The notes beneath the pieces are model-generated. The model saw only the letters and a program-made list of their open reading frames with translations. It ran no database searches and was not told where the DNA came from. A program made the position numbers and the translations under genes. From contig CACGNA010000006.1 of assembly GCA_902574425.1 (NCBI GenBank), positions 1 through 58,021 of the forward strand: a stretch of 58,021 bases of DNA. Reading direction: 5' to 3'. The DNA comes from an uncultured Prochlorococcus sp. (GTDB lineage: Bacteria > Cyanobacteriota > Cyanobacteriia > PCC-6307 > Cyanobiaceae). Position 1 is the first letter of the stretch. The number at the start of each line of letters is the position of its first letter. This document shows, one piece after another, positions 25,229 to 29,593 of the stretch.

Positions 25229-25322
25229 TTAATAAATAGTTTTATTGTGAAATTAAGTAGATTCTTATTTGATTTTGAACTATAACAAATAAATCCTTAT
25301 TTATTCTTTGATAAAAATCTCA

Positions 25323-27356
25323 ATGGTTCATTCTATACACCCAAGAACTATTCAAGAGATTAAAGAAAAGGCCGATATTGTTGACGTTATATCTGAACAT
25401 ATTGTTCTTAAGAAGAAAGGGAAGGAATTTGTTGGAATTTGTCCTTTTCATGATGATACTAAGCCATCAATGACAGTATCACCAAGTAAACAATTCTATT
25501 ATTGTTTTTCTTGTGGCGCTGGTGGTAACTCTATTAAATTTTTAATGGAATTTACTCGAGCAAACTTTTCTGATGTTGTACTTTCTCTTGCAAAAAAAAA
25601 TAATATTAATGTTGAAAATCTTGAGGGTCCCCAAGTAGAAGCATATAAAAAACAATTATCCAGAAAAGAAGAACTCTATAAAATACTAAGAGTCACTAAA
25701 AATTGGTTTAAGTCTCAATTAAATAATTCTCTTGGCGCTGAAGCAATGAAATATTTAACATCAAAGAGAAAATTGAATAACAAAATTATTGATAACTTTG
25801 AATTAGGTTTCGCTCCAAATTCATGGAACGATTTATTTAATTATCTATCCAAGGTAGAAAAATTTCCTATTAATCTAATATTAGCTTCAGGTCTTGCAAT
25901 TTCTAAAGATAATTCTGGCAAGATTTATGATCGTTTTAGAAATAGGTTAATTGTTCCAATACATGATATGCAGGGAAGAGTAGTTGCCTTTGGGGGCAGA
26001 TCTCTTGATGGTCAGGAACCCAAATATCTTAATTCTCCTGAATCAGAGATATTTGAAAAGGGAAAAATGTTGTTTGCATTAGAAAAAGCTTCTAGCAATA
26101 TTAGAAAAAGAGATAAAGCTATTATTGTTGAAGGATACTTTGATGTGATTTCTCTTCATTCAAAGGGCATTACTAATTCTGTGGGTTCTCTCGGTACCGC
26201 ATTAAATAAGTATCAAATTTCTCAACTATGTAGATGTACAGATAATAAAAATATAATTTTGAATTTTGATTCTGATAATGCAGGTATATTAGCTACAAAA
26301 AGAGTAATTAAAGAAGTGGAGAGTCTATCTCTTCATGATCAAATTAATCTTAAGATACTTCAACTAAGTGATTTTAAAGATCCTGACGAATATTTGAATA
26401 GTCATACACCTGAAGATTATTTTAATTTGATTGATAACTCATCCTTTTGGATTGATTGGGAGATTGATCAGATCTTTAAAGATAAAGATTTAACTAAGGC
26501 TGAAATTTTTCAGAGTGTTATTTCTTTATTGGTAAAATTGTTGAGTAAATTACCTCAATCATCAACCAGAACTCATTACTTACAAAAAGTTGCCGAACAA
26601 TTAAGTAAGGGACAAGCTAGATTAGCAATACAGTTTGAACAAGATTTAAGATATCAAGTTAAGGGTTTTCGTTGGCATGGTAGATCAAAAAAATTTGAAC
26701 AACCAAATGAAATTTCTCGACGTGAGAAAAATGAATCGGAAATAATCTTTTATTATTTACATTGTCCAGATCTTAGGCTATTTATTCGAGATGAATTTCT
26801 CAAAAGAGAAATAAATGGTTTTAATACTAATTATATTCAAAATTTATGGGAAGCTATTTCAAAAATTGAACAAAATAATTTAGGTTTAAATTATTTAAAT
26901 GATTTAAAACAATCAAATAGTCAAATTCTTCATAAAGAGTTTTCTGCTATTAACTTAATTTCACTTCTGCCTGACTACTTAGTTAATAATAATCCTGAAT
27001 CATCAAATAAAATTAATATTTTTATTAATCCAAATGAGTTTTTTTTAACATTACTGAGTAACCCTAAAGACAATTTACTTGGAACCTTATCACTTCTTGA
27101 GAAATATAATTCTCTAAAAAGATGTAGACACTTAATCGAATCTTGGGGATCTCAAAGATTAAAAACTCTAGAAAATTGTATATCTATATTAATTGATAAT
27201 TCTTCTTCAGGTTCCTCAAATACTAATAAAGAGATAGACGATCTTTTTAAGGATTTAAATTCAGATGCGATTAAATTTCAGGAATTATATTATTTAGAAA
27301 GACAACATATTAATTTTTTAGATAAACAACGCTGTGGTAACTTCATTGCTAGTTAA
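25323..27356 (+). CDS. dnaG: DNA primase
   Basis: Makes RNA primers for replication. From ATG 25323 the 677-residue protein has the CHC2 zinc ribbon (Cys40, His43, Cys61, Cys64), the catalytic core and the TOPRIM motif EGYFD at about 270-274, followed by NFDSDNAG and the DPDEYL segment. The C-terminal DnaB-interacting part is divergent. A TTG at 25308 would add five residues and is not needed. It converges with the HEXXH gene, with 16 bp between the stops. Confidence 0.98.
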   Translation: MVHSIHPRTIQEIKEKADIVDVISEHIVLKKKGKEFVGICPFHDDTKPSMTVSPSKQFYYCFSCGAGGNSIKFLMEFTRANFSDVVLSLAKKNNINVENLEGPQVEAYKKQLSRKEELYKILRVTKNWFKSQLNNSLGAEAMKYLTSKRKLNNKIIDNFELGFAPNSWNDLFNYLSKVEKFPINLILASGLAISKDNSGKIYDRFRNRLIVPIHDMQGRVVAFGGRSLDGQEPKYLNSPESEIFEKGKMLFALEKASSNIRKRDKAIIVEGYFDVISLHSKGITNSVGSLGTALNKYQISQLCRCTDNKNIILNFDSDNAGILATKRVIKEVESLSLHDQINLKILQLSDFKDPDEYLNSHTPEDYFNLIDNSSFWIDWEIDQIFKDKDLTKAEIFQSVISLLVKLLSKLPQSSTRTHYLQKVAEQLSKGQARLAIQFEQDLRYQVKGFRWHGRSKKFEQPNEISRREKNESEIIFYYLHCPDLRLFIRDEFLKREINGFNTNYIQNLWEAISKIEQNNLGLNYLNDLKQSNSQILHKEFSAINLISLLPDYLVNNNPESSNKINIFINPNEFFLTLLSNPKDNLLGTLSLLEKYNSLKRCRHLIESWGSQRLKTLENCISILIDNSSSGSSNTNKEIDDLFKDLNSDAIKFQELYYLERQHINFLDKQRCGNFIAS

Positions 27357-27372
27357 TACGTTTATTTTGAAT

Positions 27373-27840
27373 TTATAGGCAGTATTTTTTAATCAAGTTT
27401 TTTACCTTTTTGGGTTTATCTTCAAGAACATAAGCTTCAACTTCTTTTGCATAAGTTCCAGAAAAATTAGAAATCGAGAACTTCAGCGCATTCCTCTTAC
27501 TTGGATGTAATTTACTTTCTAGTTTTTCTATATCTCCTACTGTTTTATTGTTATTACATTTTTGTATTGCATGCGTTGCTTCATGTCTTAATGCTTTTCT
27601 TATCGCACGTTCTGTTTTAAAGTTATCTTTTCTTGGTTGTTGCTTTATAGTTTTATAATTTGTTTTCCTTTTTGCATTTTCAGTACATATTATTATCTTA
27701 TTCTCTTCAAAATTGTGTAGTCCTTTAATCTTCTTGTTTAATTGACACTCAACTTTATTTTCTTCAACTATGTAATTTGCTTTTGTTAATAATTCAAGAA
27801 TATCTTTATCTAATTTGCTTAAAAATATAATAAATTCCAT
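27373..27840 (-). CDS. Putative zinc metallopeptidase, ATP23/M76-like, third gene of the umu operon
   Basis: A 155-residue protein without signal peptide or membrane span. It has the zinc-peptidase motif HEATH at residues 86-90 in LRHEATHAIQKC, an upstream segment ENKIIICTENA (about 47-56) and a downstream KEVEAY (132-137) whose glutamates could give a third metal ligand. The order I-x-x-C-x-N, HExxHAxxxC, EVxA is what I recall for the ATP23/XRCC6BP1 (peptidase M76) family, but this is a motif-level resemblance only. The start is 9 nt after the umuC stop, with no room for a promoter, so it should be co-induced with polymerase V. Function is not proven. Confidence 0.6.
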   Translation of the reverse strand: MEFIIFLSKLDKDILELLTKANYIVEENKVECQLNKKIKGLHNFEENKIIICTENAKRKTNYKTIKQQPRKDNFKTERAIRKALRHEATHAIQKCNNNKTVGDIEKLESKLHPSKRNALKFSISNFSGTYAKEVEAYVLEDKPKKVKNLIKKYCL

Positions 27841-27849
27841 TTTATTTTT

Positions 27850-29136
27850 TTACTTTACTATAGTTGGTATATGCTTGATATCGGTTGTAGATGAGGGACT
27901 TAAGAAATTTTTACTCATCGACCAACTTTGTGGCTTTTTTGTAATCGCCCATGTAATTGCATCATGATTGAATCTTTTATTTAAGAAATCAATCGTTCTC
28001 ATAAGATTTGTTGATTTTTTTAGATCTTTCTGAGATTTGTAATTGATAACTGATTGCTGTAAATATTTGCTATTAGTTAAATCCTGCATTAAAACACCAG
28101 CTTTTGAGAATTTATATTCGGGATTATAAATTTCTTTAGATAATGCGACTACTATTTTTAAAATACTATTTGTATCGTCTGTTGGATTTGTAAGTTTTCT
28201 ATGAGCACTTCTTTGGTAATTTTGAGTTGAATATTTACTGGTTCTGGCAAATACTCTAATATTAGATGATTGCAAATTTTGACTTCTCATTTTTTCAGAT
28301 GCTTTTATTGCATGAGTAGCTAGTGCTTGAGTTAAGTCTTCTAATTTTGTGACAGGTGTACCGAAACTCCTGCTTACCTGAATTTCTTTTTTGGATTTCT
28401 TATTTTTTTCTATAGGCAGACATTTATGACCTTTAAGTTCTAATTGCAGTCTTTCCCCTACGATGCCTAGTTTCTTAATGATTTCCTTTTCTTCCATATC
28501 TCTTAATTCTCTTGCATTTTTAATACCTTTACTTTGTAACCAATTAGAGGTTTGTTTCCCGACTCCCCAGATCTTATCTATACTAATTATTTTCAAATAA
28601 TTATTCTCATTTCTGGCTCTAGCCAAATCAAATATTCCAGCTGAATAATCAATATTTTTAGCTAATTTATTAGCAATTTTTGCTCTTACTTTATTTTCTC
28701 CTATTCCTACGGTTATGGTAATCCCTAGATTCTGATATATTAATGCTCTTATGCTTCTTGCCCAAGGATATAGATTTTTATCATTAGGTCTAGAAATCGA
28801 GACAAATGCTTCATCAATAGAATAAATCTCTATCTGTTCACAGCAGTCTTTTAGTAAATTCATTAGTCTTCTACTCATATCGCCATAAAGAGAGTAATTT
28901 GAGCTTAAAACTGCTACACCTAATTTATTTAATCTTTCTTTCACCTTAAAATAAGGAGCCCCCATTTTGATTTTTAAAGCACGCGCTTCAGGACTTCTCG
29001 CAATGATACATCCGTCATTATTAGATAAAATCACTACTGGTTTATTCCTTAAATGAGGATTAATAGTTTGTTCACATGACGCGTAAAAATTATTAGCATC
29101 TATAAGAACTATCGCATTAATACTTGGAATTCTCAT
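27850..29136 (-). CDS. umuC: Translesion DNA polymerase V subunit UmuC
   Basis: Y-family DNA polymerase that copies damaged templates. The 428-residue protein has the catalytic blocks ALIDANNFYASCEQ (here VLIDANNFYASCEQ) and YSIDEAFVS with the metal-binding aspartates and glutamate, a helix-hairpin-helix segment (KIWGVGKQTSNWL), the little-finger region and a C-terminal RecA/UmuD-interacting tail. Its start overlaps the umuD stop as ATGA, so the two are coupled. It belongs to the three-gene operon controlled by the LexA-like palindrome at 29553-29593. Confidence 0.97.
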   Translation of the reverse strand: MRIPSINAIVLIDANNFYASCEQTINPHLRNKPVVILSNNDGCIIARSPEARALKIKMGAPYFKVKERLNKLGVAVLSSNYSLYGDMSRRLMNLLKDCCEQIEIYSIDEAFVSISRPNDKNLYPWARSIRALIYQNLGITITVGIGENKVRAKIANKLAKNIDYSAGIFDLARARNENNYLKIISIDKIWGVGKQTSNWLQSKGIKNARELRDMEEKEIIKKLGIVGERLQLELKGHKCLPIEKNKKSKKEIQVSRSFGTPVTKLEDLTQALATHAIKASEKMRSQNLQSSNIRVFARTSKYSTQNYQRSAHRKLTNPTDDTNSILKIVVALSKEIYNPEYKFSKAGVLMQDLTNSKYLQQSVINYKSQKDLKKSTNLMRTIDFLNKRFNHDAITWAITKKPQSWSMSKNFLSPSSTTDIKHIPTIVK

Positions 29137-29549
29137 AAATAGCTATGTATTGAATAAATGACAACGCCCCATATCTGTACATCAAGATGGTTTTTAAATC
29201 TGAAATCAGGATAATTATGATTTTCTGCTTTTAAATATAATTCATTATTTTTTATAGATAATCTTTTTATTGTAAATTCGCCGTCTATCATTGCAATGAT
29301 AATATTCCCTGGCTTGGCTGTTAAACTCTTGTCTACTATTATTAAATCTTTATCTTTAATTCCAGCATTTATCATTGAGTCGCCTTTAACTCTAAGGAAA
29401 AAAGTGCTAAACGGATTAGATATTAAATGTTCATTCAAATCAATATTTTCTTCTGTATAGTCATCTGCAGGAGAAGGAAATCCTGCTGATACCGAATCAG
29501 TTAATAAGGGGACCTTAAACTTTTTAGTAGTTGAATCAAAGAAATCCAA
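29133..29549 (-). CDS. umuD: UmuD, self-cleaving polymerase V subunit
   Basis: S24-family autoprotease that, after RecA-stimulated self-cleavage, forms polymerase V with UmuC. The 138 residues include the cleavage region SAGFPSPADDY, with Ala22-Gly23 where E. coli has Cys-Gly, the catalytic Ser58 in GDSMINAGI and Lys95 in FTIKRLSI. All needed residues are present. It is the first gene of the operon, 14 bp downstream of the LexA-like box. Confidence 0.96.
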   Translation of the reverse strand: MDFFDSTTKKFKVPLLTDSVSAGFPSPADDYTEENIDLNEHLISNPFSTFFLRVKGDSMINAGIKDKDLIIVDKSLTAKPGNIIIAMIDGEFTIKRLSIKNNELYLKAENHNYPDFRFKNHLDVQIWGVVIYSIHSYL

Positions 29550-29552
29550 GAC

Positions 29553-29593
29553 TTAAATTAATAGTATATATGTACTATATACTATTAATTTAA
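29553..29593. repeat. 41-bp perfect inverted repeat containing the LexA box
   Basis: Bases 29553-29570 and 29576-29593 are an 18-bp perfect inverted repeat separated by TGTAC, whose inner GTAC is itself self-complementary. The axis falls at 29573. It lies between the rlmH stop and the umuD start. There is no T-run on the minus strand after the stem, so it does not look like an intrinsic terminator for rlmH; an extended operator is the better reading. Confidence 0.9.
29563..29576 (-). promoter_or_regulatory. LexA (SOS) box upstream of umuD
   Basis: AGTATATATGTACT on the plus strand (AGTACATATATACT on the minus strand) matches the cyanobacterial LexA consensus AGTAC-N3-TGTACT at 13 of 14 positions when read in either direction. 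It lies 13 bp in front of the umuD start codon, where bound LexA would block transcription. The consensus is from memory of published cyanobacterial SOS boxes. Confidence 0.75.

What the first reader, a model, noticed from the sequence alone, without database searches (positions are those of the whole stretch)
27373..29593. SOS operon umuD-umuC plus an ATP23/M76-like HEXXH metallopeptidase
Three minus-strand genes are packed with an ATGA overlap and a 9-nt gap behind one LexA-like operator. The third product (155 aa) has HEATH at 86-90 and the motif order I-x-x-C-x-N, HExxHAxxxC and EVxA that I recall for ATP23/XRCC6BP1 (M76) peptidases, which in eukaryotes are linked to mitochondrial ATP-synthase assembly and, by name, to Ku-associated repair. 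A zinc peptidase induced with translesion polymerase V could trim UmuD or LexA, clear DNA-protein crosslinks or remodel replisomes. The role is inference.
Basis: partly seen in the sequence, partly recalled or inferred. Interest (0 to 1): 0.82.

Follow-up and report, generated by a model that had tools for sequence, protein, structure and literature searches.

The report
Zinc peptidase in a mutagenesis operon
In the ocean cyanobacterium Prochlorococcus, a small predicted zinc-dependent protein-cutting enzyme is encoded right behind the genes for an error-prone DNA polymerase, and related viruses keep the same kind of gene beside their DNA-replication clamp genes, which points to an untested role in copying DNA.

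Summary
In detail: umuD, umuC and a 155-aa HEATH protein, ATGA overlap, 9-nt gap, and a LexA-type site with one mismatch 12 nt before umuD. The third gene is under purifying selection (dN/dS 0.11-0.17). Its model (pLDDT 92.3) resembles zincins such as IrrE/PprI and lethal factor, all under Z 8. H86, E87 and H90 are in 71 of 71 rows, E133 in 70, so E133, not E135, is the likely third ligand. M76/ATP23 membership is not met: no Pfam hit for this protein, sub-threshold hits in 8 of 71. It follows umuC in 56 of 74 family-wide places. New: viral relatives sit in the sliding-clamp module of T4-like cyanophages, next to gp45 in 110 of 116 contigs, many of them near-copies. Best reading: a cytosolic zinc endopeptidase serving clamp-dependent DNA synthesis (Pol V in hosts, the replisome in phages), substrate unknown. 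SOS-linked zincins are known (DUF955 with DinB and ImuB-C), so this is a new variant of a known kind.

The parts
29562..29577 (-). LexA-type operator, one mismatch to TAGTACA-N2-TGTACTA, 12 nt upstream of the umuD start
   Evidence: a similar site upstream of umuD in 54 of 54 loci with at most 3 mismatches and in 77 of 77 tested named loci of 80 (73 with 1 mismatch, 4 with 2). Consensus from PMC2921402 (passages).
29133..29549 (-). umuD, 138 aa, TTG start, Peptidase_S24 / Pol V autoproteolytic subunit
   Evidence: PF00717 116.4 bits; NF007621 163.8 bits, over cut-off 110.
27850..29136 (-). umuC, 428 aa, Pol V catalytic subunit, ATGA overlap with umuD
   Evidence: IMS, IMS_C, DUF4113 over their cut-offs; NF002955 is best but below its cut-off.
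27373..27840 (-). third gene: 155-aa predicted cytosolic zincin, relative of PHROG 16003
   Evidence: (phrog_16003 E 4.6e-11).
27571..27585 (-). HEATH codons, residues 86-90 (HExxH motif)
   Evidence: H86, E87, H90 in 71 of 71 cytosolic and phage rows (window included) and in 4 of 4 exported paralogues.
27442..27444 (-). codon of E133, likely third metal ligand
   Evidence: E in 70 of 71 rows (D in phage S-SRM01) and in 4 of 4 exported paralogues; E135 is Q in 9 of 71. Atomic geometry could not be measured.
27421..27423 (-). codon of E140 in an ED-x-P motif, mark of the cytosolic and phage group
   Evidence: E in 71 of 71 cytosolic and phage rows, K or A in 4 of 4 exported paralogues.
25308..27356 (+). 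dnaG (primase), convergent neighbour on the other strand; not part of the operon
   Evidence: named by my own recognition; used as a synteny marker.

Best explanation
The third gene encodes a small cytosolic zinc endopeptidase of the Glu-zincin type (zinc held by H86, H90 and E133; E87 as catalytic base). It is made together with UmuD and UmuC when LexA repression is lifted. It most likely cuts a protein of the clamp-bound DNA-synthesis machinery, or one that blocks it, so that a polymerase can take over or be removed: Pol V in Prochlorococcus, the phage replisome in T4-like cyanophages. Shown by computation: the gene, its likely fold class, the conserved motif, selection, the LexA-type site, the linkage to umuDC and to the phage sliding clamp. 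Inferred: zinc binding, catalysis, co-induction. Guessed: the substrate.
For: Fold: AlphaFold pLDDT 92.3, pTM 0.88, and 94.9, 0.90 for a phage relative. Second looks put HExxH proteins first: 3dte IrrE Z 7.3, rmsd 2.2, 80 aligned; 4dv8 lethal factor 6.8; ArdC 5.9; minizincin 5.5; lethal factor 6.3, PprI 5.9, ArdC 5.4. Motif. Selection. Host linkage: 56 of 74 places directly downstream of umuC; 23 of 23 full-length same-genus loci, own included; 80 of the best 80 of 194 named-genome relatives, all 82-88% identical (78 by script, two on reading coordinates). Virus linkage: 35 of 37 contigs follow gp45, with a one-base overlap in 27 of 35; a second scan with alignment A4 gave 79 further contigs, 75 next to gp45, 2 between gp45 and gp44, 2 cut at the contig end with gp44 downstream. 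Named phages DSL-LC02, S-SRM01 and SynMITS9220M01 agree. [quoted passage not shown]
Against: No substrate, activity or metal is shown. Fold Z scores are under 8, and one search also lists Certhrax (5.0) and an M. tuberculosis transcriptional regulator (5.3) at Z 5 or more. Foldseek against the PDB gave nothing at E<=0.001; the profile found no PDB sequence. rlmH and dnaG flank most linked loci, so synteny alone could keep the gene there. In 16 of 72 testable places the gene is elsewhere; six genomes of other genera keep rlmH-umuDC-dnaG without it. In the other 45 loci measured outside the window's genus the gap is 31-355 nt, so an own promoter is possible there. Alignment A4 contains 14 phage or phage-like rows, so the second viral scan is not independent of the first, and many contigs are near-copies (19 distinct proteins in the first 35). 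The tree keeps most phage copies apart from host copies, so roles may differ. The abstract of PMC2921402 says added UV changed repair genes, umuC named, only slightly. No expression data for the third gene were found.
Confidence: 0.42

Rival explanations
1. An IrrE/PprI-like switch: after DNA damage the protease cleaves a repressor (LexA or another) and so turns repair genes on or keeps them on.
For: Top structural match is IrrE, 3dte Z 7.3, rmsd 2.2, 80 aligned residues; PprI again for the phage model, Z 5.9. IrrE is a zinc peptidase that cleaves DdrO after radiation (PMC8072749, abstract and section 4.2). Zincins of Pfam DUF955 are linked to DinB and ImuB-C in SOS neighbourhoods (PMC3765255, passages).
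Against: Z is tied with lethal factor rows. At 155 aa there is no room for the GAF-like part of IrrE. The gene lies behind a LexA-type site, so it would act after derepression. No DNA-binding repressor gene is adjacent in the host operon; the phage module holds regA, a translational repressor, some genes away.
Confidence: 0.18
2. A DNA-protein-crosslink protease, working like SPRTN or Wss1, that clears blocks ahead of Pol V or the phage replisome.
For: Linkage to translesion polymerase and clamp genes; basic host proteins, pI 9.62 in the window and 9.3-9.63 in the five other host rows printed; SprT-like weak hits in 3 of 71 rows.
Against: The genus already encodes an SprT-like protein in 38 of 41 genomes; no DNA-binding domain beyond the catalytic fold is apparent; phage copies range from pI 6.2 to 9.2.
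Confidence: 0.12
3. An ATP23/M76-type processing and assembly factor, perhaps acting mainly as a chaperone, for Pol V or the phage clamp complex.
For: M76 is the Pfam family hit by most aligned rows (8 of 71, best E 0.00091); the best matches span the stretch that ends at HExxH.
Against: All hits are under the curated cut-off, and the window protein has none. PF09768 passed its cut-off in 0 of 146 genomes of the phylum.
Confidence: 0.1
4. The gene only lodges behind umuDC by history and has an unrelated housekeeping role.
For: Whole-block synteny rlmH-umuD-umuC-gene-dnaG; copies elsewhere in 16 of 72 testable places; umuDC at the same site without it in six other genomes.
Against: Viruses keep it in or beside the clamp module in 115 of 116 contigs, hard to explain by lodging; the short gap in the window genus (9-10 nt in 10 of 10 loci measured).
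Confidence: 0.18

Closest known systems
PHROG 16003 (phage protein family, unknown function)
   Same: Sequence match over residues 12-154, E 4.6e-11; same HExxH and Cys pattern in the cyanophage copies.
   Different: No function is given; the PHROG profile also rings for exported paralogues, so it is wider than the umu/clamp group.
IrrE/PprI and other ImmA/IrrE (M78, DUF955) zincins
   Same: Best structural match (3dte Z 7.3, rmsd 2.2, 80 aligned); HExxH; a DNA-damage setting. DUF955 zincins are linked to DinB and ImuB-C (PMC3765255, passages).
   Different: No PF06114 hit in the window protein; 155 aa, single domain; the operon partner is Pol V, not a repressor; four conserved Cys.
ATP23 / peptidase M76 (PF09768)
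   Different: Below the curated cut-off; C-x-x-N here; bacterial and viral, whereas Table 2 of PMC3890501 (passages) counts M76 in 21 eukaryote phyla and in no archaeal or bacterial one. Nothing links it to ATP synthase.
Anthrax lethal factor peptidase domain (M34)
   Same: Similar zincin fold over almost the whole model (4dv8 Z 6.8, rmsd 3.6, 120 aligned).
   Different: Matched only as a fold; no toxin context or sequence relation seen.
SOS-linked proteolysis by LexA, UmuD and SRAP
   Same: Peptidases serving the SOS response; UmuD is in this very operon.
   Different: Those are serine or thiol autopeptidases (PMC3765255, passages); this one is a predicted metallopeptidase.

Membership tests
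Peptidase M76 / ATP23 | PF09768 score over the curated cut-off (25.2 bits) | tested here: not met
   No hit for the window protein; best relative 19.5 bits; consensus sequences no hit, 15.7 and 15.0 bits.
Peptidase M76 / ATP23 | HExxHAxxxC | tested here: met
   HEATHAIQKC in the window protein; C95 in 71 of 71 rows. The family motif itself is recalled, not from a call.
Peptidase M76 / ATP23 | fold of a solved M76 protein | tested here: inconclusive
   None among the listed matches; no library of predicted cellular structures at hand.
IrrE/ImmA (M78, PF06114) | PF06114 score over cut-off (22 bits) | tested here: not met
   Absent for the window protein; 14.2 bits in one exported paralogue.
IrrE/ImmA (M78, PF06114) | peptidase fold of IrrE | tested here: inconclusive
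   3dte Z 7.3, rmsd 2.2, 80 aligned; under Z 8 and tied with lethal factor.
IrrE/ImmA (M78, PF06114) | cleavage of a partner repressor | not testable with these tools
   Needs biochemistry.
SprT-like (PF10263) | PF10263 score over cut-off | tested here: not met
   No hit in the window protein; weak hits in 3 of 71 rows, best E 0.013.
Glu-zincin metallopeptidases | HExxH plus a conserved downstream Glu | tested here: met
   H86, E87, H90 in 71 of 71, E133 in 70 of 71 (D in S-SRM01); all four invariant in the 73 rows of A5, which lacks that row. Definition of Glu-zincin: PMC3890501 (passage).
Glu-zincin metallopeptidases | zincin fold | tested here: met
   Confident models of a host and a phage member; the chains listed at Z 5 or more are zincins or their relatives, and apart from Certhrax (5.0) and an M. 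tuberculosis regulator (5.3). Caveat: each single Z is under 8 and Foldseek alone gave no significant match.
Glu-zincin metallopeptidases | bound zinc and peptidase activity | not testable with these tools
LexA-controlled umuDC operon | umuD, umuC and a LexA box upstream | tested here: met
LexA-controlled umuDC operon | third gene induced by DNA damage together with umuDC | not testable with these tools

The most novel reading that the evidence does not exclude
A clamp-cycle protease: a zinc endopeptidase shared by cyanobacteria and their T4-like phages that cuts sliding clamp, clamp loader or clamp-bound polymerase to force a polymerase switch. Prochlorococcus ties it to damage-induced Pol V, phages to their own clamp. 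As far as I know it would be the first metallopeptidase acting in the sliding-clamp cycle.
Probability: 0.2. Interest if true: 0.85.

Novelty: new variant of a known kind. Interest (0 to 1): 0.6.

Why it matters
Prochlorococcus is (recalled) the most abundant phototroph of the ocean. PMC2955971 (passages) says its strains encode Pol V but lack Pol II and IV, and that the role of SOS repair in it is not established. A metallopeptidase co-encoded with Pol V, and in phages with the clamp, is a concrete candidate for control of translesion synthesis or polymerase exchange by proteolysis, testable in vitro with a handful of proteins. It would add a Pol V-linked zincin to those already linked to DinB and ImuB-C, and give a functional lead for PHROG 16003.

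Tried and rejected
Filing it under M76/ATP23: rejected, cut-off not met. 0 of 146 genomes of the phylum pass PF09768 (19 have a match at E<=1), so no prokaryotic M76 set was at hand for a profile-profile test. Filing it under SprT or IrrE: rejected for the same reason. No M76 structure appeared in the fold listings, which excludes nothing. PADLOC and NCBIfam gave nothing usable for the third gene. Foldseek against the PDB gave no match at E<=0.001 for either model; against viral models it gave 6, four of them with named Synechococcus phages. The profile found no PDB sequence.

Co-loss with umuC: the 12 same-genus genomes without the gene also lack umuC (positive control 12 of 12). But 11 of the 12 also lack dnaG, and in the twelfth dnaG is cut at a contig end, so the region is not assembled. 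I do not count this as evidence.

The first viral scan, with the window protein, found no relative; scans with a phage member and with an alignment did. Remnants of the gene near umuDC in seven stretches of genomes that have it elsewhere or lack it: none convincing. A degenerate clamp-binding-like motif in UmuC as an explanation: strongest in the window's genus, while the gene is present with and without it. SRAP and SprT-like proteins are present in the genus (37 of 41 and 38 of 41). Literature: none of the rows shown describes this gene, as far as titles, abstract starts and the passages I read tell; some searches showed only part of their hits (15 of 24, 15 of 150, 10 of 15, 10 of 91), and the library holds only open-licence papers. 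Papers seen: passages of PMC2921402, PMC2955971, PMC3744912, PMC3890501, PMC5101192, PMC3091678 and PMC3765255; abstract and one section of PMC8072749.

Rows dropped: A4 was chosen by hand (71 rows; one search had found 87 candidate proteins, mostly from the fetched regions). The copy in L165 (a stop inside, first His of HExxH lost) is in none of A4-A6. A5 lacks the phage rows L026 and L027; L027 (S-SRM01) has Asp at 133, so E133 is invariant in A5 partly because that row is gone. L179 and L180 were fetched extra and are not in the linkage count. The tree holds 64 chosen rows.
Full report
WHAT IS THERE. On the minus strand lie umuD (29133-29549), umuC (27850-29136) and a 155-aa ORF (27373-27840), with an ATGA overlap and a 9-nt gap; dnaG on the other strand ends 16 nt away. 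UmuD and UmuC are supported by Pfam and NCBIfam, though UmuC stays under the cut-off of NF002955. A site one mismatch away from the Prochlorococcus LexA consensus of PMC2921402 (passages) lies at 29562-29577, 12 nt before the umuD start. A similar site is upstream of umuD in 54 of 54 loci, own included (31 with one mismatch, 16 with two, 7 with three), while 16 of 1,080 two-base-block shuffles reach three or fewer. In 77 named-genome loci tested it has 1 mismatch in 73 and 2 in 4. PMC3091678 (passages) lists umuCD as a predicted LexA target in several Prochlorococcus strains; the passages I saw name no third gene.

IS THE THIRD GENE REAL. Yes. Fourteen same-genus comparisons give dN/dS 0.112-0.167. 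In the 71 rows of A4 (window, host and phage relatives) E27, C32, G40, H86, E87, H90, C95 and E140 are in 71 of 71; E133 is Glu in 70 and Asp in one, phage S-SRM01; E135 is Gln in 9. In A5, with four exported paralogues added and the two phage-record rows removed, G40, H86, E87, H90, C95 and E133 are invariant. E140, in a Glu-Asp-x-Pro motif, marks the cytosolic and phage group (K or A in 4 of 4 exported ones).

FOLD. AlphaFold gives pLDDT 92.3 and pTM 0.88 for the window protein, and 94.9 and 0.90 for a phage relative. Foldseek against the PDB finds nothing significant. VIA-align as a second look puts HExxH proteins on top: IrrE 3dte Z 7.3 (rmsd 2.2, 80 aligned), lethal factor up to 6.8, ArdC 5.9, a minizincin 5.5, 1oz9 5.3. 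For the phage model: lethal factor up to 6.3, PprI 5.9, ArdC 5.4, but also an M. tuberculosis transcriptional regulator 5.3 and Certhrax 5.0. All are below Z 8, and IrrE and lethal factor are tied, so the fold class is supported but not the closest family. Ligand distances could not be measured, because no coordinates are handed out.

FAMILY. The protein matches PHROG 16003, a phage family without function (E 4.6e-11). PF09768 (M76/ATP23) does not hit it, but hits 8 of 71 rows weakly, more than any other Pfam family does; the best, 19.5 bits against a cut-off of 25.2, is in phage S-SRM01. Consensus sequences do no better. Table 2 of PMC3890501 (passages) counts M76 in 21 eukaryote phyla and in no archaeal or bacterial one; M34, M76 and M78 are all listed there as Glu-zincins.

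DISTRIBUTION AND LINKAGE IN HOSTS. Of 37 same-genus genomes (own included) 25 carry the gene; 23 of 23 full-length loci have umuC next to it, and the other two are cut at contig ends. The 12 without it lack umuC too, but this is missing assembly, because dnaG is absent in 11 and cut in the twelfth. In a family-wide sample of 201 genomes the type is found at E<=1e-15 in 70 genomes, 74 places: 56 directly downstream of umuC, 18 not; two of the 18 are cut at contig ends, and four or five look phage-like or exported-like. In the named genome collection 194 relatives were found and the best 80 kept, all titled Prochlorococcus or uncultured Synechococcaceae and 82-88% identical, so close kin. All 80 have umuC adjacent: 78 by the script, and the two flagged are an ORF-extension artefact on reading their coordinates. 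The gap is 9-10 nt in 10 of 10 window-genus loci measured, and 31-355 nt in the other 45. The flanks rlmH and dnaG are conserved too, so synteny alone is weak evidence. Sixteen umuC regions without the gene were looked at: six of seven from small-genome genera have rlmH-umuD-umuC-dnaG without it (the seventh is a contig end with umuC alone); of nine from larger genomes two show both flanks, five dnaG only, two neither. So the gene was added to, or lost from, an existing umuDC site. The wider PHROG profile rings in 163 of 201 genomes, because it includes paralogues whose N-termini read like signal peptides (by eye). Outside the family the alignment finds little: 29 of 242 class genomes, 26 of them in the window's family.

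VIRUSES. This is the new part. Phages DSL-LC02 and S-SRM01 carry the gene straight after gp45, the sliding clamp, and before gp44, the clamp loader; SynMITS9220M01 has one gene between gp45 and it. A scan of viral contigs with the phage protein gave 37 loci: 35 follow gp45 (gap 142 nt in one, at most 8 nt in 34), one (L070) is cut by the contig end with gp44 after it, and one (L095) has no recognisable neighbour. The start overlaps the gp45 stop by one base in 27 of 35. A second scan with alignment A4, led by the window protein but holding 14 phage or phage-like rows, found 269 relatives, of which the best 80 were kept, 79 new: 75 lie next to gp45, 2 between gp45 and gp44, 2 at a contig end with gp44 downstream. 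So 110 of 116 are adjacent to gp45, and 115 of 116 lie in or beside the clamp module. Many contigs are near-copies (19 distinct proteins in the first 35), and the scans favour this subgroup, so independent cases are fewer. T7-like cyanophages P60, S-CBP42 and S-TIP28 carry exported-type relatives shortly before the RNA polymerase gene, and phage ACG-2014f carries one among unnamed genes: the wider family is not always clamp-linked.

TREE. Exported types split from the others (100/99). Ten of 11 clamp-module phage copies, with two phage-like copies from larger genomes, form a group (98/91); the eleventh, SynMITS9220M01, is a long branch of unsure place. The host group, in which umu-linked and unlinked copies mix, is weakly supported (81/20). 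The direction of transfer between phage and host is not resolved.

MECHANISM. The common factor of umuDC and gp45/gp44/gp62 is clamp-dependent DNA synthesis. I therefore favour a zinc endopeptidase that cuts a protein of, or a block on, that machinery. The catalytic step follows from fold and motif; the substrate is a guess. Rivals are an IrrE-like repressor protease, a crosslink protease, an ATP23-like assembly factor, and lodging without function. The genus already has an SprT-like protein in 38 of 41 genomes and SRAP in 37 of 41, which weakens, but does not exclude, the crosslink idea.

NOVELTY. [quoted passage not shown] A zincin with Pol V is thus a new variant of a known kind, from another sequence family. 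The tie to the phage sliding clamp was not described in any paper that my searches showed (some listings were partial).

Noticed in passing
L026:4001-4411 (phage DSL-LC02, WJZ48381.1): The phage relative is annotated serine hydroxymethyltransferase; with HExxH and a PHROG 16003-type sequence this name looks wrong.
   Followed up: yes
L200:3401-4000 (SynMITS9220M01 gene 128, annotated DenV): The gene between gp45 and the peptidase reads by eye more like a 2-oxoglutarate/iron oxygenase than a pyrimidine-dimer glycosylase; not tested.
   Followed up: no
window 27850-29136 (UmuC C-terminal part): After KAGV the stretch reads LQQSVIN in the window, while many other genera keep Qxx[L][LF], which resembles a beta-clamp-binding motif (recalled): possible loss of the canonical clamp peptide.
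   Followed up: partly
L160, L161, L162 (G085, G138, G102): A cytosolic-type copy sits in one conserved spot between a gene that reads like phosphoglycerate mutase and groEL/groES in three genomes, grouping weakly (85/60) with phage copies in the tree.
   Followed up: partly
L165:3605-4420 (G139): A broken phage-like copy (a stop inside, first His of HExxH lost) lies beside a stretch of repeated peptides that look like a CRISPR array read in frame, and near a short ORF that reads like Cas2 (by eye).
   Followed up: no
L198:1472-1960, L199:4902-5381, L202:3375-3824: T7-like cyanophages carry exported-type relatives among early genes shortly before the phage RNA polymerase.
   Followed up: partly
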